Shown here piece by piece: positions 4,318-16,503 of a DNA stretch of 49,719 nucleotides. Under the pieces are notes generated by a model, which was given only the letters and a program-made list of their open reading frames with translations, was not told the origin of the DNA and ran no database searches. Every line of letters begins with the position of its first letter. Position 1 is the stretch's first letter. The stretch comes from an uncultured Alphaproteobacteria bacterium (lineage in GTDB: Bacteria > Pseudomonadota > Alphaproteobacteria > Geminicoccales > Geminicoccaceae): NCBI GenBank assembly GCA_937926445.1, contig CALBAK010000029.1, positions 1 through 49,719 of the forward strand, read 5' to 3'. The position numbers were made by a program, and so were the translations under genes.

Positions 4318-6105
4318 ATGGTGCTCGCGACGCCGACCGTGAACACGGCCCTGCCGTTCCGCACCGCGGGTTTCCGCACGCTCGTGGAGGGTCTCGACTA
4401 CGCCGCCCGCGGCGAGACGGGCTTCAATTTCTACGGCGGCCGCGGCGAGCTCGAGCGGGTCCTCTCGTATCGGGAGTTGCGCGAGCGCGCCCGCGAGCTG
4501 GCACCGCGCCTTCTGGACCTGGGTCTCGCCCGCCTCGAGCGGGTGGCGATCGTCGCCGAGACCGGCCCCGATTTCGTGGTGGCCTTCATGGCCTGCCAGT
4601 TCGCCGGGCTCGTGCCGGTGCCGTTGCCACTCGCCTTGAGCCTCGGCACCCACCGCACGCATGTCGAGCGGCTGCGCGGCATGCTGGAGAGCGCGCGGGC
4701 CCGCGTAGCGCTGGCGTCCGAGGCCTATCGCGGTCAGCTCTTCGAGGCGGCGGCGGGCACCCTGGTCGGTTGGATCGGCACCCATGCCGAACTCGCGGCG
4801 CTGCCGGCGCGCGGCGGCGAGCTCGCCCCGCTCGGACCAGAGGATCCCTGCTACATCCAGTACTCCTCGGGCAGTACGAGCTTCCCGCGCGGCGTGCTCG
4901 TGACCCAGAAGGCGATCACCGCGAACGCCCGGGCGATCGCCGAGCACGGGCTCGCGCTGCGGCCGGGCGACCGCTGCACCTCCTGGCTGCCGCTCTACCA
5001 CGACATGGGGCTCGTGGGCTGCTGCCTGACGCCGGTACTCACCCAGATCAGCGTCGACTATCTGACCACGGCGAGCTTCGCCACGCGGCCGCTCGTCTGG
5101 CTCAAGCTCCTCTCCGCGACCGGCGGCACGATCTCTTTCGCGCCCACCTTCGGCTACGAACTGTGCGCCCGGCGGGTCGGTGCCAACGGCCTTTCGGGCC
5201 TCGACCTGTCGCGCTGGCGGGTGGCCGGGATCGGCGGCGAGATGATCCGGCCCAGAGCGCTTGCCGAGTTCGCGGCCGCCTTCGCCACGGCCGGCTTCGA
5301 CGAGCGGGCCTTCGTCGCCTCCTACGGGCTCGCCGAGGCCACGCTCGCTGTCACCTTCGCACCGCTCGGGGTGGGCGTGCGCAGCGACACGGTCGAGCTC
5401 GGCGAGGCGTTCGAGCGCCGTCGCCTCGCCACCCCGGCCGGGTCACGGGCCCGGCGGACCAGGGCCTTCGCGATCTGCGGCCGGCCCATGCCGGGCTACG
5501 CGATCGAGATCCGCGACGAGCACGGCCGGGCGCTGCCGGAGCGCCGGGTCGGCCGGGTGTGCATCAAGGGCCCGAGCCTCATGACCGGCTACGACCACAA
5601 TCCCGAGGCCACCCGCCAGGTGCTGCTCGAGGATGGCTGGCTCGATACCGGCGACATGGGCTACCTCGTGGACGGCGAGCTTGTCGTCACGGGTCGCAGC
5701 AAGGACCTTATCATCGTCAACGGCCGCAACATCTGGCCGCAGGACCTCGAATGGGCGGTCGAGCGTCTGCCGGGGGTGCGCCCCGGCGATGTCGCCGCCT
5801 TCGCGGTCACGGGCGAGGACGAGCGCGAGCGGATCGTCGTGATCGTCCAGTGCCGCACCGGCGATCCCGCGCAGCAGGCGGAGTTCCGCCGCACGGTCCA
5901 GGCGGTCGTCAACCGCCAGGCCGGCACCGAGTGCGAGCTCGTCCTGGCTCCGCCCCGCTCCTTGACCTACACGACCTCTGGCAAGCTCAGCCGCGCAGCC
6001 GCCCGCGCCGGCTATCTCGAGGGGACGATCCGCGACCTCGCGACCGCTCGCCCGCTCGCGCCGGCTGCGGCCAACAGCGACCGGCGGCTCGCCCGGGTCG
6101 GCTGA
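4318..6105 (+). CDS. acps: Fatty-acyl-AMP ligase / acyl-ACP synthetase of the ceramide pathway
   Basis: A 595-residue adenylate-forming enzyme of the fatty-acyl-AMP-ligase type. The P-loop is YSSGSTSFPRG (residues 182-192); the hinge and C-terminal lobe contain WLDTGDMGY and GRSKDLIIVNGRN; the catalytic lysine sits in TTSGKLSR (Lys556). FAALs and related enzymes activate a fatty acid as the acyl-adenylate and load it onto an acyl carrier protein. The nearby acp gene and serine palmitoyltransferase make this the counterpart of the Acps needed for ceramide synthesis in Caulobacter crescentus; that functional match is inference from synteny. The ATG at 4318 follows GAGGGGG and fits the usual length; the open frame extends upstream without support. 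First gene of a four-gene operon. Confidence 0.88.
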   Translation: MVLATPTVNTALPFRTAGFRTLVEGLDYAARGETGFNFYGGRGELERVLSYRELRERARELAPRLLDLGLARLERVAIVAETGPDFVVAFMACQFAGLVPVPLPLALSLGTHRTHVERLRGMLESARARVALASEAYRGQLFEAAAGTLVGWIGTHAELAALPARGGELAPLGPEDPCYIQYSSGSTSFPRGVLVTQKAITANARAIAEHGLALRPGDRCTSWLPLYHDMGLVGCCLTPVLTQISVDYLTTASFATRPLVWLKLLSATGGTISFAPTFGYELCARRVGANGLSGLDLSRWRVAGIGGEMIRPRALAEFAAAFATAGFDERAFVASYGLAEATLAVTFAPLGVGVRSDTVELGEAFERRRLATPAGSRARRTRAFAICGRPMPGYAIEIRDEHGRALPERRVGRVCIKGPSLMTGYDHNPEATRQVLLEDGWLDTGDMGYLVDGELVVTGRSKDLIIVNGRNIWPQDLEWAVERLPGVRPGDVAAFAVTGEDERERIVVIVQCRTGDPAQQAEFRRTVQAVVNRQAGTECELVLAPPRSLTYTTSGKLSRAAARAGYLEGTIRDLATARPLAPAAANSDRRLARVG

Positions 6106-6118
6106 GCAAGGCCGGGGC

Positions 6119-7072
6119 TTGCCGCGGCTCGATCCCGAGCTCGTCGCGCTGACCGGGGCGACGGGCTTTCTCGGCCGACACGTGGCCGAGCGGTTGCGTG
6201 CCCGCGGGCTGCGCGTGCGGGCGCTCGTTCGCCGCGACGATCCCGCCCTCGAGGCCCGAGGCGTGGAGCTTCTGCGCGGCGATCTCGGCTCGGCGGAGGC
6301 GCTCGAGGCGCTCGTCGAGGGTGCCGGAACCGTCGTGCACGGCGCCGGTCTCGTCCGGGCGCCGGCGGATGCCGCCTTCGAGGGCGCCAATGTGGTGGGC
6401 ACCGCCCGGCTCGCCGAGGCCGCGCGGAGGCGGGCCGAAGGCGCTCGTTTCGTCCTGATCTCCTCGCTCGCCGCGCGCGAGCCCGGCCTCTCGGCCTATG
6501 CGCGCAGCAAGCGGCGTGCGGAACAGGAACTCGCGAGGCGGTCGGACGGGCTCGAGCCCCTGGTGCTGCGCCCACCGGCCCTGTACGGGCCCGGCGACCG
6601 GGCGACCCTGCCGATCATGGCCCAGCTCGTGCGCGGCTTGCTCGTGGCACCCCGGGCCCCCGCGAACCGCTTCTCGCTGCTCTATGTCGAAGACCTGGCG
6701 GAAGCCCTGGCCGAGCTCGTCGCCGACCCCTCCGAACGGTGGTCGCGAGCGCCGCTCGAGCCGGACGACGGGACCCCGGACGGCTATGCTTGGCGCGATC
6801 TGGCCGAGCACGCCGGGCAGCGGACCGGGCGTCGGGTGCGCCTCGTCGAACTGCCGCGCGCGGTGATGACGGCCGCTGCACTCCTGGTCGAGGCCAGTGC
6901 CCGGCCGCTCGGCCGGGCACCGGCCCTTTCCCGCGGCAAGGTCGCCGAGCTCTTTCACCCCGACTGGCGTGCCGCGGACGACGGGCGGCTCTGGCGCGGT
7001 CGGACGCGGACGACCTTCGCCGAAGGCTTCGCCCGTACGCTCGCCTGGTATCGGTCGGCCGGCTGGCTCTGA
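6119..7072 (+). CDS. cerR: NAD(P)-dependent epimerase/reductase, CerR-like
   Basis: A 317-residue extended short-chain dehydrogenase. The Rossmann glycine motif is TGATGFLG (residues 12-19) and the catalytic pair is Tyr127/Lys131 in YARSK, with an upstream serine in LISSLA. In Caulobacter, cerR encodes a member of this family that reduces the 3-keto group during ceramide formation, and its gene lies with acp, acps and spt, as here. The start is TTG at 6119, preceded by GCCGGGG and 13 bases after the stop of the ligase; no ATG fits the Rossmann motif better. Function is inferred from family plus neighbourhood; nucleotide-sugar epimerase is the alternative, but no sugar genes adjoin it. Confidence 0.83.
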   Translation: MPRLDPELVALTGATGFLGRHVAERLRARGLRVRALVRRDDPALEARGVELLRGDLGSAEALEALVEGAGTVVHGAGLVRAPADAAFEGANVVGTARLAEAARRRAEGARFVLISSLAAREPGLSAYARSKRRAEQELARRSDGLEPLVLRPPALYGPGDRATLPIMAQLVRGLLVAPRAPANRFSLLYVEDLAEALAELVADPSERWSRAPLEPDDGTPDGYAWRDLAEHAGQRTGRRVRLVELPRAVMTAAALLVEASARPLGRAPALSRGKVAELFHPDWRAADDGRLWRGRTRTTFAEGFARTLAWYRSAGWL

Positions 7073-7104
7073 GCGGGGGATTGCGCAGTGTGGGCAAAGT
7101 CGCC

Positions 7105-7374
7105 ATGCAGCGGCCCATGACCACACCCGATCCCGATCGTCTGCTAGCCGAGGTCGGCGAGCTCGTCGCTCGCTTCGCTCCACCCGGGGCCCGTCTCGAG
7201 CGGTCCACCGAGCTCACGAGCGATCTCTCCATCGATTCGGTGGCGGCCATGGATCTCGTCATGGAGATCGAGGACCGCTACGGCATCGACGTGCCGGTGA
7301 ACGAGATCGCCGATCTCGTGACCCTCGGCGATCTGGTCGATCTCGTGGCGAGGCAGCTCGAAGCGCGGGGCTGA
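7105..7374 (+). CDS. Dedicated acyl carrier protein
   Basis: An acidic 89-residue four-helix carrier protein. Ser45 in DLSIDSVAAMD is the 4'-phosphopantetheine attachment site and the following segment DLVMEIEDRYG is the usual recognition helix. It would carry the acyl chain made by the upstream ligase to serine palmitoyltransferase. Start choice is uncertain: ATG 7105 is used here; GTG at 7090 lies 9 bases after GGGGGA and would add five residues, and ATG 7117 would remove four. It sits 32 bases after cerR, and its stop is separated by one base from the next ATG at 7376, so co-translation with spt is likely. Confidence 0.87.
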   Translation: MQRPMTTPDPDRLLAEVGELVARFAPPGARLERSTELTSDLSIDSVAAMDLVMEIEDRYGIDVPVNEIADLVTLGDLVDLVARQLEARG

Positions 7375-7375
7375 G

Positions 7376-8587
7376 ATGGACATCTTCGACAAGTACGAGG
7401 GACTCGCGGCCCGCCGGGCGCAGCTCCTGGGCGCCGGTACCGACCCGTTCCACCTCGAGATCGAGGAGTTGCACGGGCCCTGCGAGGCGACCATCGCCGG
7501 CCGCCGGACGATCCTGCTCGGCACCAACAACTATCTGGGTCTCACCTTCGACCCGGCCTGTATCGAGGCCGGGGTCGAAGCGCTACGCCGCTGCGGCACC
7601 GGCACCACGGGCTCGCGCATCGCCAACGGCACCTACGTCGGCCATCGAGCGCTCGAGGCCGAGCTCGCCGCCTTCATGGGCCGCCGTGCGGCGATCGTCT
7701 TCACCACGGGCTACCAGGCCAACCTCGCGACGATCGCGGGGCTCGCCGGAGCCAAGGACACGATCTTCGTCGATTCCGACTGGCACGCCTCCATCTTCGA
7801 CGGCTGCCGGCTGTCCGGTGCGACCGTGGTACGCTTCCGCCACAACGACCCGGACGATCTCGACCGCCGGCTCGAGCGCAACCCCACGCCGGGCGGGGTC
7901 AGGCTCGTGATCGTCGAGGGCCTCTATTCCATGCTCGGCGACGTCGCCCGGCTCGAGGAGATCGTCGCCGTCAAGAAGCGCTACGGCGCCTTCCTGCTGC
8001 TGGACGAAGCGCATTCGATGGGCGTGTTCGGCGCCCGCGGGCGCGGCGTGGCCGAGGCCCAGGGGGTCGAGGCGGAAGTCGACTTCGTCGTCGGGACCTT
8101 CTCGAAGTCTCTGGGCGGCGTCGGCGGCTTCGCGGTCTCCGACCATCCCCGCTTCGAGCTCCTGCGCGTGGCGGCGCGACCCTACATGTTCACGGCCTCG
8201 TCAGGGCCCGCGACCATCGCCTCGGTGCGTGCTGCGCTCGCGCAGATCGTCGCGCGGCCCGAGCTGCGCGAGCGGATCTGGGCGAACGCCCGCAGGCTGC
8301 ACGCCGGGCTCGCTCGCGCGGGCTTTTCGCTCGCCGCCCCGCCGGGCCCCATCCTCTCGATCCGCCTGCCCGACGAGCAGACCGCCTTACTCGCCTGGAA
8401 CCGGCTCCTCGAGGCCGGGGTCTATGTCAACCTCGCTCTGCCGCCTGGTACCCCGGGCGGGGTCTGCCTCTTGCGCTGCAGCGTCTCGGCCGCGCACACC
8501 GACGAGCAGATCGAGACCGTCCTGCAGCGTTTCGCCGCGCTCTCGGCCGAGCTCTCCCGGCTCGAGCGAGCGGTCGCCGCCGAATAG
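7376..8587 (+). CDS. spt: Serine palmitoyltransferase (alpha-oxoamine synthase)
   Basis: A 403-residue PLP enzyme of the alpha-oxoamine synthase family, which condenses an acyl thioester with an amino acid. Lys244 in GTFSKSLGG is the Schiff-base lysine, Asp210 and His213 in LLDEAHS hold the pyridine ring, and His137 in DWHASIFDG is the ring-stacking residue. The family also includes 8-amino-7-oxononanoate synthase (BioF) and glycine C-acetyltransferase. The adjacent acp, cerR and acyl-ligase genes, and the absence of any biotin gene, favour serine palmitoyltransferase, the first committed step of sphingolipid synthesis, giving 3-ketosphinganine. The N-terminal segment of about 30 residues before the core is also as in bacterial SPTs. 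Its stop lies 2 bases from the end of the facing operon. Confidence 0.9.
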   Translation: MDIFDKYEGLAARRAQLLGAGTDPFHLEIEELHGPCEATIAGRRTILLGTNNYLGLTFDPACIEAGVEALRRCGTGTTGSRIANGTYVGHRALEAELAAFMGRRAAIVFTTGYQANLATIAGLAGAKDTIFVDSDWHASIFDGCRLSGATVVRFRHNDPDDLDRRLERNPTPGGVRLVIVEGLYSMLGDVARLEEIVAVKKRYGAFLLLDEAHSMGVFGARGRGVAEAQGVEAEVDFVVGTFSKSLGGVGGFAVSDHPRFELLRVAARPYMFTASSGPATIASVRAALAQIVARPELRERIWANARRLHAGLARAGFSLAAPPGPILSIRLPDEQTALLAWNRLLEAGVYVNLALPPGTPGGVCLLRCSVSAAHTDEQIETVLQRFAALSAELSRLERAVAAE

Positions 8588-8589
8588 GC

Positions 8590-9501
8590 TCAGCGGACGG
8601 CACCGCGCCGGCGCAGCCGCGGCAGGAGGAGGAGACCCGCGAGGATCGGATGTCGGCGCTGCCAGGGGCGGAGCACGATCCGCTCGCCCGAGTGCCGCTC
8701 GATCTTCCAGGCGAGATAATCCGCCCCGCCCTCGAAGGTGAAGGCGGCCTTGGCGAGCCGCAGGACCGAGCGCAGCTTGCCGAGCCGGCGTCGCCGCGCC
8801 CAGAGCCGGAGCGCACGGGCCTGCTCCTCCGGCCCGGGCAGCGGCGCGCCGGCGAGGCAGAGGCGCGCGAGGCGCTCGTAGCGCGCCGCGTCGGCCGTGA
8901 CGATCAGAGCGGCGCGGCCCGGCCTCTCGGCCCTGAGCTCGCAGCGGTAGGTCTCGTGGAAGGCCCGCTCGAAGAGCCCGAGCGGGTGGGGTGCGGTGCC
9001 GAGGAGCGGCCGGACCGCCGCCACGAGGGTCCGTACCGACCGGGCGAGGAGCGCGTGCACGCGGGCCTCGACGGCCGGATCGGCGGCCCAGAGCAGCCGC
9101 ACGGGCTGAGCGAGCCGCGCCCAGAAATAGGGTTCGAGGGTCCGGGGGCCCACGAGCCGCTCGAGCCGGGCGAGCCCCACGACCGCCACCTTGGCCCGCA
9201 CCGTTCGGTCCTCGAAGGGGGCGGCGAGATGATACACATTGGGGGGCAGGAGCGCGCCGAGGGTGTGCAGGAGGGGCCGTTCCGCCCCGCTCGTCGCATC
9301 GTCGAGCAGGACGTAGAGATCGACGAGCCGATCCCGATCCTCGCCGTCGCGCAGGCAGCTGCCGTAAAGTAGAACCGCCCGGCTGGCCGGCGCGAAGCGC
9401 GCACGCGCCACCTCGCCGATCGCGCGGAAAGCGGCCGGTACGGGAAGCCCCGCCTCGCGCGCGACGAGCTCGCGGACGGGATCGGGCGCGATCGTCAGCA
9501 C
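8590..9501 (-). CDS. Pol-beta-like nucleotidyltransferase domain protein of the sphingolipid operon
   Basis: A 303-residue protein. The N-terminal part has the nucleotidyltransferase signature: GS at residues 47-48 (LLYGSCLRDG) followed by an acidic strand at 61-68. The usual second catalytic aspartate of the D-x-D pair is replaced: the sequence is DLY (residues 61-63). The C-terminal half is helical and Arg-rich with KIERHSGE near residue 270. GTG at 9501 overlaps the kinase stop by 7 bases, with AGGAGG about 13 bases upstream. It is the last gene of the minus-strand operon, so a role in building or tuning the sphingolipid head group is likely (inference). It may match one of the cpg genes of Caulobacter; a search would settle which. 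Confidence 0.72.
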   Translation of the reverse strand: MLTIAPDPVRELVAREAGLPVPAAFRAIGEVARARFAPASRAVLLYGSCLRDGEDRDRLVDLYVLLDDATSGAERPLLHTLGALLPPNVYHLAAPFEDRTVRAKVAVVGLARLERLVGPRTLEPYFWARLAQPVRLLWAADPAVEARVHALLARSVRTLVAAVRPLLGTAPHPLGLFERAFHETYRCELRAERPGRAALIVTADAARYERLARLCLAGAPLPGPEEQARALRLWARRRRLGKLRSVLRLAKAAFTFEGGADYLAWKIERHSGERIVLRPWQRRHPILAGLLLLPRLRRRGAVR

Positions 9502-10460
9502 CGCACGAATCGAACCTCCTCGGGCGCGGTCACGACCAGCGGGCGGCCCGGGACGGGTCGGTAGAACTGACCGTCGATGGTGATCTCCGAGGCGATCTCG
9601 AGCTCGGCCCGGGCACTGCCCCGGCTGAAGAAACTGTCGGCCGGCAAGGGGCGCCGTTCGCCACCGTAGAGCACGCAGAGCGCTCGGCGAACGAGACCCT
9701 CGGGGGGCTGGCGGATCGCGGTCAGTCGGAAGGGACGGGCGAGGCCGTTCCAGAAGGGCCGCGAGGCCAGGATCAGCCGGTCGAGCGTGGTGGCGAACAG
9801 GAGAAGCTGGCGGCCCTCGCGGGTCTCGCCGTCCTCGAAGCGCATGGCCACCGGCGCACCCTCGAGCATCCCGGGCGGCCGTCGGCCGCGGGCGAGCCCC
9901 CAGAGGATCTGGGCGAGCGTCACGAAATGGGCGAGCTCCCCCTTGAGGCCCAGGCTGTGGGCCCGGGTCTTGCAAAGATGGATCGCATCGGTGATGCCGA
10001 GCGCTCCCATGAACATGCCGCGCTGGGCCTGGCCGCCCTCGAGGCCGTCCACCCGCAGTACCCGTCGATGCACCACGAAGCGGTCCAGGAGGCCGCAGCG
10101 CGCGTTGTCCAGGAGGCGCGCCAGTGCACCGGCACCGCGCCGGCGCAAGCCGCAATCGGCCGCGGTCATGTTGGCCATGCCGCGCGGCAGGATCGCGATC
10201 GGCGGCAGCGGGCTCAACAAGCGATGCTCCAGGAGCTCGGTCAGGAGACCCTGGACCGTCCCGTCGCCGCCGTTGACGACGATGAGCGCCGGGGCGAGGC
10301 GGGCGAGGTCCCGGGCGATGTCGTGCAGTCGGGTGAGCCCGTCGAAGTCGAGGCGGACCACCTCGGGGTAGCGGGCGAGCACCGCCTCGATGTCGGCCGT
10401 GCCGCGCTTGTTGCGCTCGCTGCGCCGATTGTGGACGAAGGCGATCGCCGCCCGCTTCAT
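9495..10460 (-). CDS. cpgB: Diacylglycerol-kinase-family lipid kinase, probable ceramide kinase
   Basis: A 321-residue protein of the DAGK catalytic (YegS/BmrU) family. The nucleotide-binding motif NGGDGTVQG lies at residues 63-71, followed by PRGMANM, the second conserved loop of the family. These enzymes phosphorylate lipid hydroxyls with ATP. Within a ceramide operon the likely substrate is ceramide, as for CpgB of Caulobacter crescentus, giving ceramide-1-phosphate on which a head group is built; that is inference from context. The N-terminal HNRRSERNKRG stretch is basic and may contact the membrane. The ATG at 10460 overlaps the lptG stop as ATGA, so translation is coupled. Confidence 0.8.
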   Translation of the reverse strand: MKRAAIAFVHNRRSERNKRGTADIEAVLARYPEVVRLDFDGLTRLHDIARDLARLAPALIVVNGGDGTVQGLLTELLEHRLLSPLPPIAILPRGMANMTAADCGLRRRGAGALARLLDNARCGLLDRFVVHRRVLRVDGLEGGQAQRGMFMGALGITDAIHLCKTRAHSLGLKGELAHFVTLAQILWGLARGRRPPGMLEGAPVAMRFEDGETREGRQLLLFATTLDRLILASRPFWNGLARPFRLTAIRQPPEGLVRRALCVLYGGERRPLPADSFFSRGSARAELEIASEITIDGQFYRPVPGRPLVVTAPEEVRFVRC

Positions 10461-11566
10461 GCGCGCACCGTTCCGAGCGGGGGAACGACGGGCCGGCCGC
10501 GACGCTTCTCGAGGGCGCCCGCGAGCAGCAGCACGAAGATCGCGAAGCCGATCGGTGCGGTCCAGGCCGCCAGCACCGGGCTCAGAAGCCCGAGCTCGCC
10601 GAGCGCGAGCAAAAGGCCATTGGCGATCAGATTGACGAATCCGACGGCAAGACCCTTGGAGAACAGGGCGAAGGTCTCGCCGACCCGGGCCAGCCGGTGC
10701 GCCAGAGCAAAGGGCAGTACGATCGTCGCCCAGAGTGCCACGAGCCCGGCGAGCCGGGCCTGCAGCCATGTCCGATGGGCTTCGGTCCCCCCGACCCCGA
10801 ATCCGTCCGCCTCGATCACCCGCCAGAGCTGGGCGAGCGAAAGCTCGCGTGGCAGCTTGGCCATGAGTGCCACCTGCTCGAGATCGATCCGCACCGGCCA
10901 GAAGAGCTCGTCCAGCTGCTCGGTGGGCCGAGCGGCGGCGGGCCGGCGGATCACCTCGTGCAACAGCCACCCGTCGGCCGCCGGCTCGGCGCGCGCCGCC
11001 TCGAGCCGCTCGAGCAGCCGGCCTTCGGGGTCGAGCCGCAGGATCAGAAGGTCGCGCGGCTCGCCGCGAGCGGCGGCCGCCGCCGGCAACCGGAGCACGT
11101 CGCTCCCGGTCCTGAGCCAGATCTGGCCGCTGGAGGGCAGGCCAACGGTCTTGAAGTCGGCGACGCCCAGTGCGCGCAATGCCGGCACCGTCTTCGGCAC
11201 GGCGAGATCGTCGAGAAGGATCTTCCCGCCGAGGACGACGAGCGCCACCGGCCACAGCCGGGCCACGAGGCCGAGGCGGGAGACCCCAGCGCCCCACATC
11301 GCCACGAGCTCGCGCGAGCGCAACAGATCGCTCGCTGTGAGCAGGCCGGCGACGAGCACGACCATGGGCAACAGCTCGGTCACGAGCGTCGGCATGCGGA
11401 TCGGCACGTAGGCGAGGAGGGCCCAGGCCGAGCCGCCGGCTCGGCGGACGACCCGCGGACCCATGTCGAGAAGGTCGAAGAGCAGCGCGAACCCGGTTAC
11501 CGCCAGCAGTACCACCGCGAGACGGACGAGGTAGAGCCGGACGAGGTAGCAGGTGAGCCGGCTCAC
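10457..11566 (-). CDS. lptG: LptG-family lipid export permease in the sphingolipid operon
   Basis: A 369-residue protein of the LptF/LptG (YjgP/YjgQ) family: about three N-terminal transmembrane helices, a beta-jellyroll periplasmic domain (roughly residues 130-270) and three C-terminal helices. In the Lpt machine these permeases pair with the ATPase LptB to extract lipopolysaccharide from the inner membrane. Here the gene is sandwiched between ceramide-pathway genes, so a paralogue that moves a sphingolipid is a reasonable inference. No lptB, lptA or lptC is adjacent. The GTG at 11566 overlaps the lptF stop as GTGA, and its own stop overlaps the kinase start as ATGA, so the three genes are translationally linked. 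Confidence 0.82.
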   Translation of the reverse strand: MSRLTCYLVRLYLVRLAVVLLAVTGFALLFDLLDMGPRVVRRAGGSAWALLAYVPIRMPTLVTELLPMVVLVAGLLTASDLLRSRELVAMWGAGVSRLGLVARLWPVALVVLGGKILLDDLAVPKTVPALRALGVADFKTVGLPSSGQIWLRTGSDVLRLPAAAAARGEPRDLLILRLDPEGRLLERLEAARAEPAADGWLLHEVIRRPAAARPTEQLDELFWPVRIDLEQVALMAKLPRELSLAQLWRVIEADGFGVGGTEAHRTWLQARLAGLVALWATIVLPFALAHRLARVGETFALFSKGLAVGFVNLIANGLLLALGELGLLSPVLAAWTAPIGFAIFVLLLAGALEKRRGRPVVPPLGTVRA

Positions 11567-12765
11567 GGGCCGTCGCTCCGCAGCCCGAAGCGCTGGCCGG
11601 CCCAGGCCTCGAGCCGCTCCACGAGGAGGTCGATACGGCCGCTGCCGCCGCCGTGTGGCACCCGCGCGGACCGCCACCAAGTCAACATCGCGCCGAGCGC
11701 CAGAAAGAGCCCGAAGGGCAACCACAGGCCGAGCCAGGGCGAGAGCTTGCCGTCGTCCACGAGCGATTCGCCGAAATGCAGGACCTGGTTGTAGGCGAGC
11801 AGGAGGGTAAGGCCGACGACGATCCCGTAGGAGCGGCGGGCACGGCGACGCGCGATCGCGAGCGGGAGCGCCACGAGCGGCAGGAGCGGGATCGAGAGCA
11901 CGCGCGCGAGCCGGCCGTGCAGCTCGGCCTCGATCTCGGGAGGGTCGATACCTCTGGGCGGTTCGGCGCGGGCCGCCACGAGCTCGGGCAGGGTGAGCTC
12001 CCGCTCGTCCTCGCCGCGCGGGCGGAAAGGCTTGGGCTCGCGACCCTCGAGGTCGGTCGTGAAGCTCCGGAAGCGGATCGTCGCCGCCGGCCGGCTCCGA
12101 TCACCACCCTCGACCCCGGGCACGAACTGGTGGACGCCGTCCTCGAGGTCGAAGCGGACGGGTTGCTCGCCCTGGGCGGCGAGGATCCGGCCGCGCCGGG
12201 CGGTGATCGCCAGAGTGCTGCCGTCGGCCATACGGCTGAACAGGACGAGGCCCTCGAGGCGATCGCGCTCGGGACTGAGCCGGTCCACGGCGTAAGTCGT
12301 ACCGGCCAGGGTCACGAAGGCGCGCTCGCGGATCAGGGTCAAAAAGGAGACGTTGGAGAGAGCGAAGAGCGCAGCCCGATAAGCGTAGCGACTATAAGGT
12401 TGGAGATGACTGACGATCGCGGCGTTGATCAGGACGAGCAGGGCCGCGATCACGAGGAGCGGCCGCAGGAGCTCGTGCAGGCCACGGCCGGCGGCGAGCA
12501 TGGCGTCGATCTCGCCGTCGCGGGAAAGGCGGCCGAAGACCACCAGAATGGCGAGGAAAAAGGCAGCCGGGAGCGCAACGCCCATGTAGTGCGGGACGAG
12601 GTAGCTCAGCATCTCGAGCAAAACGAGCATGCTGCCCCGCCAGCCGATCACGATGTCGAGCACCCGCAACATCCGCTCCGCCAAGAGCACGGCGAGCGCC
12701 ACGAGTACGATCGCGAGCATCGGGCGGAGGATCTGACCGACGAGGTAGCGGCTGAGCAGGCTCAT
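11563..12765 (-). CDS. lptF: LptF-family lipid export permease in the sphingolipid operon
   Basis: A 400-residue LptF/LptG-family permease starting MSLLSRYLVGQILRP, the usual opening of LptF, with N-terminal helices, the cytoplasmic coupling loop RDGEIDAMLAAGRG (near residues 85-98), a periplasmic beta-domain and three C-terminal helices. The length is normal. It forms a heterodimer with the next gene in known Lpt systems. The ATG at 12765 was preferred over one at 12825, which would add 20 Arg/Pro-rich residues in front of the first helix. It follows the metallophosphoesterase by about 100 bases, the largest gap within this minus-strand operon, so an internal promoter is possible. Whether it carries sphingolipid or lipopolysaccharide is not shown by the sequence. 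Confidence 0.85.
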   Translation of the reverse strand: MSLLSRYLVGQILRPMLAIVLVALAVLLAERMLRVLDIVIGWRGSMLVLLEMLSYLVPHYMGVALPAAFFLAILVVFGRLSRDGEIDAMLAAGRGLHELLRPLLVIAALLVLINAAIVSHLQPYSRYAYRAALFALSNVSFLTLIRERAFVTLAGTTYAVDRLSPERDRLEGLVLFSRMADGSTLAITARRGRILAAQGEQPVRFDLEDGVHQFVPGVEGGDRSRPAATIRFRSFTTDLEGREPKPFRPRGEDERELTLPELVAARAEPPRGIDPPEIEAELHGRLARVLSIPLLPLVALPLAIARRRARRSYGIVVGLTLLLAYNQVLHFGESLVDDGKLSPWLGLWLPFGLFLALGAMLTWWRSARVPHGGGSGRIDLLVERLEAWAGQRFGLRSDGP

Positions 12766-12868
12766 CGATCGGGCGGCAGGTAGGGGCTCGGTCCGGGGCG
12801 ACGGACTGGGTGTCGCTCGCCGCACGGGCTCGCCATTCGAGGCAGATATCCCAAGGGCTCCTCGCTGC

Positions 12869-13786
12869 CTAGGCGAGCGCGGCCACGGCCGGACCCCGAA
12901 GTGTCAACGGTTCGCGCACCGATCGACCGTCGGGCCCGATCCGGTAGGCTTCGGCCGCGATCCGGAAACCCCGTTCGGTTTCGGCACGGGCGATCGTGAA
13001 GAGGAGACCGCCGCCGCGCCTTTCGGGCTCGCCCGCGCGCAACGAGGCGGAGGGTCCCGCGACCACCGGGATGGGGCCCACGGGCCCTTCGAGCGTGCCG
13101 ACCTCGAGCCGGTGGTCGTGACCGGAGAGGACGAGTTCGGCACCCTCGCGGACCAGGAGCGCGCGGAGTTCGGCGGCGTCCAAGAGCGCCTTTCGGGCCG
13201 GGCTCCAGCCCTCGACCGGAGGGTGGTGGACGAGGATCACCCGCGCGAGCCCCTCGCGAGCGAGGGCACGGAGTCGACCCTCGAGACGACCGAGCTGCTC
13301 CGGCCCGAGCGCCCCCGCGGCATCGCCCCAGGGACGTGGGACCGCACTCGACAGCCCTACGAGGGCCACGGCGCCGACCCGGCGGACGAAGGGAAAGCTC
13401 CCGGGCCCACGGGCACCTTCCATCCAGGCGGCCCAAGCCGGCCAGTGGGCCTCCGCCGCCCCCGCCACATAGGCGTCGTGGTTGCCGGGCACGAGCGTCA
13501 GCCGCCCGGACGGGGCCAGCCGCTCGAGCCACACCCGGGCCCGCTCGAATTCGCCCGGCAGCGCGATGTTGACGAGATCGCCGGTCAACACCCAGTGGTC
13601 GGGCCGGGCGGCCGCGAGTGCCGCCACGCTCGCCTCGAGGATCGTCGCGAGGTGCACCTTTCGCCGGTGGAGCTGCCAGGAGAGGAAGCCCGTGAGCCGT
13701 TTGGAGGCGAGCTCGCGCGCCCGCGGCCGGGGCAGGGGCGAGAGATGCACGTCGGTCAGATGGGCGAGGCGAAGGATCGCGCTCAA
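12869..13786 (-). CDS. Calcineurin-like metallophosphoesterase
   Basis: A 305-residue protein with the complete calcineurin-type dimetal motif set: TDVHLSP (D12, H14), LTGDLVN, VPGNHDAY, ILVHHPP and SGHDHRLEVG. These enzymes cleave phosphomonoesters, phosphodiesters or nucleotide-diphospho-lipids; LpxH and ceramide-metabolising phosphoesterases are examples. Position between a nucleotidyltransferase and LptF suggests action on a phosphorylated or nucleotide-activated sphingolipid intermediate (inference). The start is TTG at 13786, overlapping the preceding stop as TTGA and preceded by GGGAGGGA. The residues after the start match the usual beginning of the family (RLAHLTDVH), which supports this unusual codon. 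Confidence 0.82.
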   Translation of the reverse strand: MSAILRLAHLTDVHLSPLPRPRARELASKRLTGFLSWQLHRRKVHLATILEASVAALAAARPDHWVLTGDLVNIALPGEFERARVWLERLAPSGRLTLVPGNHDAYVAGAAEAHWPAWAAWMEGARGPGSFPFVRRVGAVALVGLSSAVPRPWGDAAGALGPEQLGRLEGRLRALAREGLARVILVHHPPVEGWSPARKALLDAAELRALLVREGAELVLSGHDHRLEVGTLEGPVGPIPVVAGPSASLRAGEPERRGGGLLFTIARAETERGFRIAAEAYRIGPDGRSVREPLTLRGPAVAALA

Positions 13787-14595
13787 GCTTCCCTCCCGGC
13801 GGCACGGCAGGCGAGGATCGCCTCGACGAGTGCGAGATCGTCCGGCCGGTCGACGTCGATCGCCGCCGCGCCGATCGGGATCGACACGGCCGTCACGGAG
13901 CAGCCGAGCAGGCGGGACGCGCGCGCCATTGCCTCGGCCAGTGTCAGGCGACCGGCGAGATAGAGCAGCAAATCGGTGACCCCGAGGAGCCGGACGATAC
14001 GCCAGGGTCGCTTGCGCTCGGCCTCGACCCGCCGCCAGAAGGCGAGCGCCGGTCGCGCCTCGGCACCCCGCAGAAGGAAGAGGTTGGCGCCCGAGAAGCG
14101 CCCGTCTCGAAAGCGCCACCAGGTCCGCCGGCTGGCCGGTGCGGCCGCACGGACGGCAGACTCGGGGGCGAGGCCGACCACGACCGCGGCACCGCTCGAG
14201 AGTGCCGGGCCGAGGAACGCCTCGAGGATCGGCCTATCGAGCAGAGGATGATCGGCCGTGGCGACGAGAAGCGGCCCGTCGCCCGCTTCCCCGAGGGCCG
14301 CCGCCACGCTCGTCGAGGGGGTGGCCTCGGGTGCCCGCAGCGCGAGGCGCCCGGCCGCGAGCTCCCGGGCGACGACCGGCAGCCTGGCGACGCCGGCCGC
14401 AGGGTCGGCCAGGAGCAGGATGTGTCGCAGGGCCGGCAGGCCGGCGAGCGCCTCCACCACCCGTTCGACCATCGCCCGTCCGGCGACCGGGGCCAGGCAT
14501 TTGAAGCGGACGCCCGCGGCCCGCGCGACCGGGTCGGTCTCGCCCGGCCGGGCACCCGCGAGTACCACAGCGCGAAGCTCGACCGCCGGCCTCAC
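13783..14595 (-). CDS. MobA-like nucleotidyltransferase, head-group activation candidate
   Basis: A 270-residue NTP-transferase (MobA-like/GT-A fold). The N-terminus ELRAVVLAGARPGE is the nucleotide-binding start, with a lysine further on (RFKCLAP) and the acidic ATADHPLLD segment for metal binding. Such enzymes transfer a nucleotidyl group to a phosphorylated small molecule or sugar. In this operon it could make the activated donor for the sphingolipid head group, complementing the kinase and phosphoesterase; this is inference. The C-terminal third contains a hydrophobic LLLYLAGRLTLAEAM patch that may associate with membrane. GTG at 14595 overlaps the ceramide synthase stop as GTGA, with AAGGAG a few bases upstream. 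Confidence 0.75.
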   Translation of the reverse strand: MRPAVELRAVVLAGARPGETDPVARAAGVRFKCLAPVAGRAMVERVVEALAGLPALRHILLLADPAAGVARLPVVARELAAGRLALRAPEATPSTSVAAALGEAGDGPLLVATADHPLLDRPILEAFLGPALSSGAAVVVGLAPESAVRAAAPASRRTWWRFRDGRFSGANLFLLRGAEARPALAFWRRVEAERKRPWRIVRLLGVTDLLLYLAGRLTLAEAMARASRLLGCSVTAVSIPIGAAAIDVDRPDDLALVEAILACRAAGREA

Positions 14596-15731
14596 CCGAG
14601 CTCCTTCTCGTAGATCCGGTAGGTTTTGTAATGTCGGCCGCCGCACAGCTCGATGATCGTCCGCACCCGGCGATTGTCCTCGAGCACCCAGGAGAGCTCC
14701 GCACCGCGGGTGCCGCGCGGGGTGTGCACGCGCTTGATCTCGGCGATCACGGAAAGGGCGAGGGCGGCACCCAACGGCCCGTTCTGATAGGCCTTGCGCA
14801 CGCCCATGAGAGGCATCCGCCATTCCGGAACGCCTCGAACGCGCAGCCTCCAGAGGAGCTTGAACCAGCCGAAGGGGAGCAGCCTGCCGCCCAGATCGCG
14901 GATCGCGAGATTGAGGTTCGGGAGGACCACGAGCATCGCCGCGGGCTCGCCCTCGAGCTCGGCCAGGACGAAATCCCGCGCTCCCACGAGCGGCCGGATC
15001 GAGCGGGCGAGATGGAGCGCCTCGGCCTCGTCGAAAGGAATGAAACCCCAATTGTCGGACCAGGCATCGTTGAAGATCGCGCAGATCGTCCGGATCTCGT
15101 CCTCGTAGCGGCGCATGTCGAGCGGACGGGTGCGGATCTTGGCGGAACGCGCCACCCGCGCCATCGCCGCCTCGGCGGCGCGTGGCAGGGGGGCCTGGAC
15201 GTCGAACCAGTAGCAGAGAAGGTCTTTCGCCTTGCGGTAGCCGAGCTCCTCGAGACGCCGGCCATACCAGGGCCGGTGGTGCCCCATCAGCATGCTCGGG
15301 ACCGTCTCGAAGCCCTCGACCAGGAGGCCGCAGGAATCGTTGATCGAGGGGTCGAAGGGACCCGCCACCCGACGCATGCCGCGCTCGGCGAGCCAGCCCT
15401 CGGCGGTTCTGGCGAGAGCTTCGAAGACCTCCGGATCGTCCTCGCCCTCGAGGAAGCCGAAATGGCCGGTGGCGTCTCGGTAGCGCTCGAGATGCGCCCG
15501 GTTGACCTGGGCCGTGATCCGGCCGACGTCCCGCCCGTCCCGTCGCGCCACGAAGAAGGCGATTTCGATGCGGCGGAGGAAGGGGTTCTGGGCCGGGTCG
15601 AGATGCTGTCGCCGCTCGAGGTCGAGCGGCTTCACCCAACAGGGATCGTCCCGGTAGATCGGGTCGGGGACGGCGAGGAAGCGGGCGAGGCCGCGACGCC
15701 CCTCGACCCGCTCGACCTCGACCCGCGCCAC
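14592..15731 (-). CDS. bcerS: GNAT-family bacterial ceramide synthase
   Basis: A 379-residue protein with an N-terminal region (WVKPLDLERRQHLDP) and acetyltransferase-like folds, containing the characteristic GPFDPSINDSCGLLVEGF segment near residues 135-152 and a C-terminal SWVLEDNRR stretch. Proteins of this kind, often called GNAT or dATP pyrophosphohydrolase-like, include bCerS of Caulobacter crescentus, which N-acylates the sphingoid base. Presence beside lipid kinase, lptFG and facing spt supports that role. The GTG at 15731 lies 10 bases after the hydroxylase stop; no clear Shine-Dalgarno is visible, so coupling to upstream translation is likely. The open frame upstream overlaps the hydroxylase gene and is not coding. 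Confidence 0.85.
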   Translation of the reverse strand: MARVEVERVEGRRGLARFLAVPDPIYRDDPCWVKPLDLERRQHLDPAQNPFLRRIEIAFFVARRDGRDVGRITAQVNRAHLERYRDATGHFGFLEGEDDPEVFEALARTAEGWLAERGMRRVAGPFDPSINDSCGLLVEGFETVPSMLMGHHRPWYGRRLEELGYRKAKDLLCYWFDVQAPLPRAAEAAMARVARSAKIRTRPLDMRRYEDEIRTICAIFNDAWSDNWGFIPFDEAEALHLARSIRPLVGARDFVLAELEGEPAAMLVVLPNLNLAIRDLGGRLLPFGWFKLLWRLRVRGVPEWRMPLMGVRKAYQNGPLGAALALSVIAEIKRVHTPRGTRGAELSWVLEDNRRVRTIIELCGGRHYKTYRIYEKELG

Positions 15732-15741
15732 AGGAGCCGGC

Positions 15742-16503
15742 TCAAGCCGCGCGGCGGGTGCGGCGGGCGGCGAGCTCGGTCTCGCTCGCCGACGCCTCGG
15801 CCACCCAGGGATACCGCTGCCGCTCCTCGGCCGTGTAGCCGAGGTTGAAGGTCGTGGGGCTGCGCGGCACCTCGCGGGGATGCTCGTAGAGCGTGCCCAG
15901 GATCCGGTCCCAGAGCCCGCTCGTGATCCCGAAATTGCCCTGCTCGTTGTGGAAATGGTGCGCGAGATGGCGCCGCTTGATCTCCCGCAGCCAGCGGTTC
16001 TTGGGTGTGAACGGCAGGTGCTGGACGCAGTGGCAGAACTCGTAGCCGGCGAAGAGCAGGAGTGCGGTGGCGAAGGCGGCGAAGGCACCCGACGAGCCGC
16101 CCACGAGCCAGCCGAGTGGCAGCGCGATCAGCGCGATCGTCGGCAAGGTCGTGTAGAGCGCGCCGAACAGCACGGCGAGATCGTGCGGGTCGGCGTGGTG
16201 GTCGTAATGGATCCGCTTCCACACCCGCGCGGTGAGCGGCGACTTGTAGAGGAACCGGCCGTGCAGGACGAAGCGGTGCAACAGATATTCGACGGCCGGG
16301 TAGACGAGGATCGTGACGGCCAAGGCGAGCAACGGGCCGAGCCAGCCCTCGGCGAGCCGGATCGCGAACAGGGTCGAGACGGCCGCCGTCACGAAATAGA
16401 CCAGGATCGAATAATGCGTGAGATAGGCGACGACGAGCTCGCCCAACGTCATCTTGTCGAGCTGGTAGCGCCGGCTCACCCAGGGTCGCCAAGAGATCAC
16501 CAT
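15742..16503 (-). CDS. Fatty-acid hydroxylase / sterol-desaturase superfamily membrane enzyme
   Basis: A 253-residue integral membrane di-iron oxygenase with the histidine boxes HRFVLH (76-81), HYDHH (99-103), HCVQH (158-162) and HLAHHFH (179-185), and about four transmembrane helices between them. The spacing is as in ceramide 2-hydroxylases (Scs7/FA2H type) and carotenoid hydroxylases. As first gene of the ceramide operon it most likely hydroxylates the acyl chain or long-chain base of the sphingolipid (inference). The ATG at 16503 has only a weak GGGACGG upstream. The 188 bases up to the next gene (16504-16691) hold no gene and probably carry the operon promoter; I see no strong hexamers there. 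Confidence 0.83.
   Translation of the reverse strand: MVISWRPWVSRRYQLDKMTLGELVVAYLTHYSILVYFVTAAVSTLFAIRLAEGWLGPLLALAVTILVYPAVEYLLHRFVLHGRFLYKSPLTARVWKRIHYDHHADPHDLAVLFGALYTTLPTIALIALPLGWLVGGSSGAFAAFATALLLFAGYEFCHCVQHLPFTPKNRWLREIKRRHLAHHFHNEQGNFGITSGLWDRILGTLYEHPREVPRSPTTFNLGYTAEERQRYPWVAEASASETELAARRTRRAA

What the first reader, a model, noticed from the sequence alone, without database searches (positions are those of the whole stretch)
4318..16503. Complete sphingolipid factory split into two convergent operons
Seen: acyl-AMP ligase, CerR-like reductase, ACP and serine palmitoyltransferase on the plus strand; hydroxylase, bCerS-like GNAT, MobA-like NTase, metallophosphoesterase, LptF, LptG, DAGK-family kinase and pol-beta-like NTase on the minus strand. 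Known: the Caulobacter ceramide pathway uses acps, cerR, acp, spt and bcerS, and CpgB is a ceramide kinase. Inferred: all steps from fatty acid to a phosphorylated, head-group-bearing sphingolipid are packed in 12 kb in this methylotroph, with new accessory genes.
Basis: partly seen in the sequence, partly recalled or inferred. Interest (0 to 1): 0.85.

Follow-up and report, generated by a model that had tools for sequence, protein, structure and literature searches.

The report
Sphingolipid cluster that replaces LPS
These twelve genes look like a kit for making a phosphate-bearing sphingolipid and sending it to the cell surface, in a bacterial group that seems to have given up the usual surface lipid, LPS, and now ships the sphingolipid through the old LPS export machine.

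Summary
In detail: 12 genes in two convergent runs at window 4318-16503. SPT passes as SPT and fails the BioF and Kbl cut-offs. Three things go further. (1) Among 31 Geminicoccaceae genomes, all 23 without lipid A synthase LpxB, the window's included, carry this cluster (some cut by contig ends); 6 of 8 with LpxB lack it. In the 23, every LptF/LptG found is the cluster's. The usual lptFG is missing between pepA and lptD in all 21 measurable ones, while lptD stays in 31 of 31. Simplest reading: a sphingolipid replaced LPS and travels by cluster LptFG plus LptD. (2) The "pol-beta-like" gene is CpgC-type; its predicted fold matches Tam41, a CDP-lipid synthase, so I predict it makes CDP-ceramide. 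CpgC's mechanism is called unidentified in print (PMC13228409). (3) No convincing CpgA or CpgD was found in this genome, so CPG2 is not expected. No chemistry was tested. On a tree the losses are only two or three events.

The parts
4318..6105 (+). aasR/acps: fatty acyl-AMP (acyl-ACP) ligase, loads the special ACP
   Evidence: Pfam AMP-binding 2.5e-59; NCBIfam PRK09192 fatty acyl-AMP ligase 787 bits, cut-off 600
6119..7072 (+). cerR-like SDR reductase (TTG start, uncertain)
   Evidence: Pfam Epimerase 3.1e-23; no ceramide-reductase model among its NCBIfam hits, all below cut-off; position next to acpR and spt
7105..7374 (+). acpR: dedicated acyl carrier protein
   Evidence: Pfam PP-binding 5.1e-10; general ACP models below their cut-offs
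7376..8587 (+). spt: serine palmitoyltransferase
   Evidence: NCBIfam NF047599 611 bits, cut-off 500; PDB 2jg2 SPT E 1.3e-133
8590..9501 (-).
   Evidence: AF2 pLDDT 89.4; top five Foldseek PDB hits are Tam41 CDP-DAG synthases; Y46 G47 S48 D61 K104 invariant in 23 of 23
9495..10460 (-). CpgB-type DAGK-family kinase; predicted ceramide kinase
   Evidence: Pfam DAGK_cat 2.6e-10; only DAGK_cat match in the genome; GGDG motif read in the sequence
10457..11566 (-). lptG of the sphingolipid type; only LptG found in the genome
   Evidence: Pfam LptF_LptG 2.2e-41; tree
11563..12765 (-). lptF of the sphingolipid type; only LptF found in the genome
   Evidence: Pfam LptF_LptG 3.2e-63; tree
12869..13786 (-). 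metallophosphoesterase, co-occurs with the MobA-like gene
   Evidence: Pfam Metallophos 5.7e-12; co-occurrence
13783..14568 (-). MobA-like nucleotidyltransferase (position of Caulobacter CC_1153); GTG start uncertain
   Evidence: Pfam NTP_transf_3 4.1e-11; PDB 2dpw TTHA0179 4.2e-28
14592..15722 (-). cerS: tandem-GNAT protein, predicted bacterial ceramide synthase (start uncertain)
   Evidence: AF2 pLDDT 91.8; top PDB folds include tandem GNATs, best E 6e-15
15742..16503 (-). fatty acid hydroxylase family protein, predicted ceramide or sphingoid hydroxylase
   Evidence: Pfam FA_hydroxylase 4.3e-21; next to cerS in most family loci that reach that far

Best explanation
This is a gene set for a phosphosphingolipid and its export, and in most of the Geminicoccaceae genomes examined, the window's genus included, it has taken the place of LPS. 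Proposed steps: AasR charges AcpR with a fatty acid; SPT joins it to serine; [quoted passage not shown] The CpgB-type kinase makes ceramide-1-phosphate. The CpgC-type Tam41-like enzyme activates it with CTP to CDP-ceramide. A headgroup acid-alcohol, with the MobA-like NTase and the phosphoesterase acting as a pair on it, is then attached. The cluster's LptF/LptG, the only such pair found in the genome, hand the lipid to the retained LptD for the outer leaflet. Shown here: gene identities, gene order, Tam41-like predicted fold, no hit for LpxC, LpxB, CpgA or full-length CpgD, and the single LptFG pair. Inferred: every reaction, the headgroup, the transport and the outer-leaflet role.
For: Gene identities. 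Same cluster across the family and other taxa. LpxC absent in the window genus, 6 of 6, while 4 of 14 control genomes ring, E. coli and Caulobacter among them; LpxB absent in 23 of 31 family genomes. All 23 carry the cluster: 21 by the CpgC hit, G011 and G030 by fah-cerS-moba-mpe-lptF-lptG cut by a contig end. By the CpgC hit only 2 of 8 LpxB+ genomes carry it; Fisher p 3.8e-5 with genomes taken as independent. One LptF and one LptG in the window genome, in this operon; in the 23 LpxB-less genomes every match over the cut-off lies in the cluster, G016 showing LptF only, at a contig end. pepA-lptD gap 86-529 bp with no canonical lptFG in 21 of 21 measurable LpxB- genomes; 2339-2604 bp with lptFG inside in 6 LpxB+ genomes. 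LptD in 31 of 31. Canonical LptF and LptG each form a clade (SH-aLRT 100) apart from cluster copies. G005, one contig, shows the same pattern. CpgC fold and active site; PMC11646218 says Tam41 keeps one of the three usual acidic residues.
Against: G010 has LpxB, a partial LpxC and the cluster but no canonical lptFG. G011, G012 and G016 have LpxC without LpxB. Few independent events: 3 LPS changes and 2 canonical-lptFG changes on the tree, 3 pairs, so no significance after phylogeny. Other Lpx genes were not searched. In 6 of 20 loci, the Arboricoccus one included, spt is not in the fetched stretch and was not searched elsewhere in those genomes. PF09139 (Tam41) does not match; Foldseek TM-scores are about 0.45-0.56 with rmsd 6.7-8.2. 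No enzyme that would displace CMP from CDP-ceramide was identified. Caulobacter work puts CerR in the periplasm and predicts CpgB cytoplasmic (PMC11087976, PMC10331486), so order and sidedness of the steps are open.
Confidence: 0.62

Rival explanations
1. An ordinary Caulobacter-type CPG/CPG2 cluster in an LPS-bearing bacterium; LptFG in the cluster also serve LPS.
For: Same gene families and much the same order as CC_1165-CC_1153. G009 has both lipid systems with two LptFG pairs; G010 has LpxB but only the cluster LptFG.
Against: LpxC and LpxB not found in the window genus, including the one-contig genome G005; no convincing CpgA in any of 31, full-length CpgD only in G024.
Confidence: 0.13
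2. The sphingolipid cluster is real, but the lost LPS was replaced by some other glycolipid; the cluster LptFG exports that, and the link with sphingolipid genes is neighbourhood inheritance.
For: A conserved two-domain protein with an ELM1-type domain sits beside the cluster in the window and in 8 of 20 loci.
Against: LptF/LptG of this type sit with cerS and cpgB in many taxa where no ELM1 gene was found and lie apart from canonical copies.
Confidence: 0.12
3. The CpgC-type protein is not a CDP-ceramide synthase: it transfers glycerate or another group to ceramide-1-phosphate directly, or has lost nucleotidyl transfer (its second acidic position is Tyr or Phe).
For: D61-x-Y63 replaces the usual D-x-D (the usual motif is recalled); no Pfam Tam41 match; no CpgA-type CDP-alcohol transferase found to use CDP-ceramide.
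Against: Tam41 itself keeps one acid (PMC11646218); G47-S48 and D61 invariant in 23 of 23; best folds are Tam41; Olea-Ozuna et al. report a CDP-DAG-synthase InterPro domain for CC_1161.
Confidence: 0.35
4. The LPS-gene pattern is a phylogenetic coincidence or assembly artefact.
For: Two or three events only; many genomes are drafts; G010 is a clear exception.
Against: G005 is one contig; G017 and G018 are rated 100% and 99% complete; LptD and pepA are neighbours exactly where lptFG is missing.
Confidence: 0.12

Closest known systems
Caulobacter crescentus CC_1168-CC_1152 phosphosphingolipid (CPG/CPG2) cluster (PMC11324152)
   Same: aasR-cerR-acpR-spt, kinase plus CDP-DAG-synthase-like gene beside spt, LptF2/LptG2, cerS followed by a CofC-like NTase, a phosphoesterase.
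   Different: No CpgA or full-length CpgD found in the window genome; hydroxylase inside the operon; two tight convergent operons; LpxC and LpxB not found, and these LptFG are the only copies found. Gene-by-gene sequence comparison with Caulobacter was not possible.
Sphingomonads, which replace LPS with glycosphingolipids (stated in PMC11087976)
   Same: LPS replaced by sphingolipid; the same LptFG-cpgB-cpgC neighbourhood in several Sphingomonas loci.
   Different: Different family and order; MobA-like and phosphoesterase genes, which were not found in the Sphingomonas loci shown. LPS genes and canonical lptFG of sphingomonads were not searched here.
Tam41 mitochondrial and bacterial CDP-DAG synthase (PDB 6ig2, 6ig4, 7ecd)
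   Same: Predicted fold, NTase motif with one acidic residue, basic C-terminal helix, no predicted transmembrane segment.
   Different: No detectable sequence match to Pfam Tam41; usual genetic pairing with a ceramide-kinase-type gene; lipid substrate predicted to be ceramide-1-phosphate.
Canonical LPS exporter LptF/LptG beside lptD
   Same: Same Pfam family PF03739; predicted to work with LptD.
   Different: Separate branches and location; canonical pair missing from the pepA-lptD junction in the LpxB-less genomes that could be measured.

Membership tests
Serine palmitoyltransferase | Scores as SPT and not BioF or Kbl | tested here: met
   NF047599 611 bits over cut-off 500; BioF and Kbl below cut-off; PDB SPT best
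Caulobacter-type CPG2 cluster | Five ceramide genes aasR, cerR, acpR, spt, cerS | tested here: met
   by family and position, not by comparison with Caulobacter sequences
Caulobacter-type CPG2 cluster | CpgB ceramide kinase | tested here: inconclusive
   DAGK_cat and GGDG motif; CERK clade membership not treed, activity untested
Caulobacter-type CPG2 cluster | CpgC between spt and cpgB | tested here: inconclusive
   position met; CC_1161 sequence not available
Caulobacter-type CPG2 cluster | CpgA CDP-alcohol transferase | tested here: not met
   no match in G000; 5 of 31 genomes have partial hits only, 18.5-20.5 bits
Caulobacter-type CPG2 cluster | CpgD phosphoglycerate cytidylyltransferase | tested here: not met
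   G000 has six partial hits, best 39.5 bits over positions 2-66 of 244; only G024 has a near full-length match, 106 bits
Caulobacter-type CPG2 cluster | LptC2 and flippase (CC_1168, CC_1166) | not tested
Tam41 CDP-DAG synthase | Pfam PF09139 match | tested here: not met
   rang in no control genome, so it is weak evidence
Tam41 CDP-DAG synthase | Tam41 fold | tested here: met
   top five of 16 PDB hits at E 0.001 or better are Tam41, TM about 0.45-0.56, rmsd 6.7-8.2; the rest are other nucleotidyltransferases
Tam41 CDP-DAG synthase | One of the three NTase acidic residues kept | tested here: met
   D61 in 23 of 23, Tyr (21) or Phe (2) at 63; criterion from PMC11646218; the third acidic position was not located
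Tam41 CDP-DAG synthase | CTP-dependent lipid cytidylyltransferase activity | not testable with these tools
   needs enzyme assay
Bacterial ceramide synthase (bCerS) | GNAT fold | tested here: met
   tandem GNAT folds are among the leading PDB hits
Sphingolipid-for-LPS replacement | Lipid A pathway absent | tested here: met
   LpxC and LpxB not found in the window genus, 6 of 6 each; other Lpx genes not searched
Sphingolipid-for-LPS replacement | Sphingolipid in outer leaflet | not testable with these tools
   needs lipidomics

The most novel reading that the evidence does not exclude
In Geminicoccaceae a phosphosphingolipid displaced LPS, perhaps twice: the lipid A genes and the canonical lptFG were lost, LptD was kept, and a sphingolipid-specific LptFG took over the bridge. 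The lipid's headgroup is built through CDP-ceramide made by a bacterial Tam41-like CTP:ceramide-1-phosphate cytidylyltransferase, a liponucleotide route to sphingolipid headgroups parallel to CDP-diacylglycerol.
Probability: 0.42. Interest if true: 0.86.

Novelty: new variant of a known kind. Interest (0 to 1): 0.7.

Why it matters
Two questions stated as open in print become directly testable. How sphingolipids get from the inner to the outer membrane is called not known in PMC11324152; here nature seems to have removed the LPS-type LptFG and left only the sphingolipid-type pair with LptD. How CpgC works is called unidentified in PMC13228409; the Tam41-like prediction names substrate, cofactor and catalytic residue. 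A cultured relative, Arboricoccus pini (a contig of the same length as one of G018), shows the same pattern for LpxC, LpxB, LptFG, LptD and the minus-strand genes; its spt was not looked for. If true, replacement of LPS by sphingolipid reaches beyond sphingomonads, with a defined exporter swap.

Tried and rejected
Rejected: BioF or Kbl identity of the SPT candidate. Rejected: 'new accessory genes', since counterparts are published. Rejected as an assembly artefact: cpgC absence in G011 and G030, where the cluster is cut by contig ends. Checked late: G026's extra LptF lies with fah-cerS-moba-mpe, so in the cluster; G023's second LptFG pair lies beside pepA, is canonical, and its DNA is 91% identical to the first, so probably a second strain in the bin.

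Led nowhere: Rfam on the window found nothing; PF09139 rang in no genome or control; sequence search of PDB with the CpgC alignment gave nothing below E 0.1; no held paper has CDP-ceramide, bacteria and cytidylyltransferase together; Geminicoccaceae with sphingolipid gave one taxonomy paper, which says sphingolipids appear restricted to Sphingomonadales within the class; searches joining sphingolipid with LptD, lipid A, LPS-deficient or lpxC listed no title on this family (listings only); of the papers matched for Tam41 with Caulobacter or sphingolipid, 8 of 152 were listed and none of the 8 mentions Tam41. So 'not in print' means not found in these searches of open-licence papers. The C. crescentus sequence was never obtained: the single genome-contig scan kept the best 80 of at least 574 confirmed stretches, and no title among the 80 names Caulobacter.

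A first alignment of the CpgC loci ignored strand and was wrong; it was redone. LpxC was searched in only 19 of the 31 family genomes. One search scored G030 as lacking the cluster, before one search showed otherwise; it was not rerun.
Full report
Observation. The twelve genes exist as described, in two convergent runs at window 4318-16503. Gene ends are tight, with overlaps of 4 to 7 bases between several minus-strand genes and 2 bases between the ends of spt and the NTase gene. Start codons of cerR, cerS, the MobA-like gene and lptG are uncertain.

Identity of the parts. The SPT candidate is an SPT by curated model and by nearest solved structures. The acyl-AMP ligase passes the fatty acyl-AMP ligase model. 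The GNAT protein had no Pfam match, but its model (pLDDT 91.8) matches GNAT structures, tandem ones among the best, as expected for a bCerS-type enzyme. LptF, LptG, kinase, phosphoesterase, MobA-like NTase and hydroxylase are by Pfam. The kinase is the only DAGK_cat match in the genome.

Published frame. In PMC11324152 (I read the outline, section 8 part 1 of 2, sections 9 and 13, and passages) the Caulobacter region CC_1168-CC_1152 holds aasR, cerR, acpR, spt, cerS, the ceramide kinase CC_1160, CC_1161 with a CDP-DAG-synthase InterPro domain, CC_1159 with a domain that suggests CDP-alcohol transfer, phosphoesterase CC_1158, CofC-like CC_1153, CC_1152, and LptC2, LptF2, LptG2. CC_1152 is, by its place and description, CCNA_01210 or CpgD (my equation), which makes CDP-glycerate (PMC12275187, outline and part 1 of 4). 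PMC13228409 (passages) says CpgC acts by an unidentified mechanism. So this is a known kind of cluster. The MobA-like gene follows cerS as CC_1153 follows CC_1154, and the NTase gene lies between spt and the kinase as CC_1161 does. This is positional; I had no Caulobacter sequence.

Spread. The NTase family was found in 25 of 60 genomes of the relatives search, 23 of them among the 31 of the family, window genome included, in 46 of 386 sampled genomes of the class, and in at least 574 confirmed stretches of the named genome collection, of which 80 were kept, including Nitrospirales, Desulfobacterota and Marinimicrobia. In the 20 loci the spt gene is in the fetched stretch in 14; the other 6, Arboricoccus included, were not searched further. 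In 45 named loci of 18 kb or more, the kinase gene is adjacent on the same strand in 36. In the same 45 loci, MobA-like and phosphoesterase genes go together (both 21, one only 3, neither 21), and CpgD occurs only with CpgA (both 14, CpgD only 0, CpgA only 3, neither 28). This suggests a core (kinase, NTase), a second module (MobA-like, phosphoesterase) and a third (CpgA, CpgD). The window has the first two. These loci were chosen for their NTase and include relatives, so the counts are not independent. No shuffled control was run on them.

CpgC-type protein. The AF2 model (23 sequences, pLDDT 89.4) gives Tam41 CDP-DAG synthases as the top five PDB matches, E 9e-7 to 2e-5, TM about 0.45-0.56, rmsd 6.7-8.2; other nucleotidyltransferases follow. 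PF09139 does not match. Tam41 is reported to keep one of the three usual acidic residues (PMC11646218, passages); in 23 of 23 sequences D61 is kept and the second position is Tyr (21) or Phe (2). The C-terminal 33 residues have 9 Lys or Arg and 1 Asp or Glu, and no segment passes a simple hydrophobicity test, in line with the peripheral membrane binding reported for Tam41 (PMC7018664, passages). I predict CTP:ceramide-1-phosphate cytidylyltransferase activity. Olea-Ozuna et al. already suggested an activation step for CC_1161; the fold and active-site evidence is what is added here.

LPS and LptFG. PF03739 finds one LptF and one LptG in the window genome, both in this operon. LpxC is missing in the window genus, 6 of 6, and LpxB in 23 of 31 family genomes, the window genus included; E. 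coli and Caulobacter rang among the controls of both. LpxC was run on 19 of the 31 and found in 8: G007, G009-G014 and G016. Of the 23 LpxB-less genomes, 21 have the NTase gene, and G011 and G030 hold fah-cerS-moba-mpe-lptF-lptG up to a contig end, so 23 of 23 carry the cluster. Every LptF/LptG match over the cut-off in these 23 lies in cluster DNA; G016 shows LptF only, at a contig end, and G026's LptF is split over two contigs. Of 8 LpxB+ genomes, G009 and G010 carry the cluster and six show no NTase gene. Fisher exact p is 3.8e-5, or 9e-4 by raw NTase hits, both treating genomes as independent. At the pepA-lptD junction, 21 of 21 measurable LpxB-less genomes have 86-529 bp and no canonical lptFG (for G002 and G020 no pepA was in reach); G007, G009, G013, G014, G022 and G027 have 2339-2604 bp with lptFG inside; G023 has lptFG beside lptD on one contig and a second, 91% identical copy beside pepA on another; G010 has LpxB but 267 bp and no lptFG. 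LptD is in 31 of 31. The LptF/LptG tree (82 rows, quick method, SH-aLRT only) separates canonical from cluster copies, canonical clades at 100; cluster LptF is not one group because the two non-alphaproteobacterial rows fall apart, and cluster LptG is one side of a branch with support of only 12.

Limits of the LPS case. On a KsgA plus PepA tree LPS status changes 3 times and canonical lptFG twice; three independent pairs cannot reach significance. G008, nested among LPS+ genomes, suggests a second loss. G010 and the three LpxC+ LpxB- genomes G011, G012 and G016 are exceptions I cannot explain; contamination or decaying pathways are possible. G005 is one contig, so gaps do not explain the genus pattern.

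Headgroup. CpgA profile: no match in G000; five genomes with partial hits of 18.5-20.5 bits. CpgD profile: partial N-terminal hits in all 31, as expected for the general NTP-transferase fold; near full-length only in G024, 106 bits. So CPG2 is not predicted. If CDP-ceramide is made, the enzyme that uses it is not known; a housekeeping CDP-alcohol transferase is possible. The MobA-like NTase and phosphoesterase would then activate and trim the headgroup. This is inference.

Taxonomy. Two of the closest named loci are Geminicoccaceae MAGs whose contig lengths equal those of G004 (L049) and G001 (L059), and L063 is Arboricoccus pini, whose contig length equals one of G018. That the family is Geminicoccaceae rests on these matches. 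Sphingomonads are the known case of sphingolipids in place of LPS (PMC11087976, outline and Discussion). PMC10331486 was seen as passages. PMC7179689 (passages) says sphingolipids appear restricted to Sphingomonadales within the class.

Verdict. Sphingolipid synthesis is near certain (about 0.93), a phosphosphingolipid is likely (0.8), replacement of LPS with a dedicated LptFG is likely (0.75), CDP-ceramide is the bold part (0.55-0.6). These figures are judgement. New variant of a known kind.

Noticed in passing
window 16692-19055 (-): 787-aa two-domain protein with a C-terminal ELM1-type domain (PF06258) next to the cluster, also seen in 8 of 20 loci.
   Followed up: partly
L214:8692-12219 and L215:7924-10224 against L220:9667-12057: LptD of two genomes of the LPS-less genus has no Pfam LptD_N match at 1e-5, while LptD of one LpxB+ relative has one; a changed N-terminal domain might fit a new lipid cargo.
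   Followed up: no
45 named loci of 18 kb or more: MobA-like NTase and metallophosphoesterase genes almost always occur together (21 both, 3 discordant, 21 neither), so CC_1153 and CC_1158 may act as a pair.
   Followed up: partly
L095:5106-5555 and 18 other loci: A small conserved protein that reads like a HIT-family hydrolase (name from memory, no family search) is found in 19 loci, in several between the phosphoesterase and lptF; it may be the Caulobacter CC_1157 gene that was called probably unrelated.
   Followed up: no
L071:3150-4376, L075, L083, L169: A second CpgA-like gene sits between lptG and the hydroxylase gene in these loci.
   Followed up: no
L162 and L163 (G250, G322): cpgB-cpgC pair with no other cluster gene detected within the 20 kb fetched.
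   Followed up: no
G010 (L227, L233); G011, G012, G016: Mixed cases: LpxB with only the sphingolipid LptFG, or LpxC without LpxB.
   Followed up: partly
window 197-2812 (+): DNA polymerase III alpha-type protein, finger and HHH domains found but no PHP domain hit in this frame; the start may lie outside the window.
   Followed up: no
   Followed up: no
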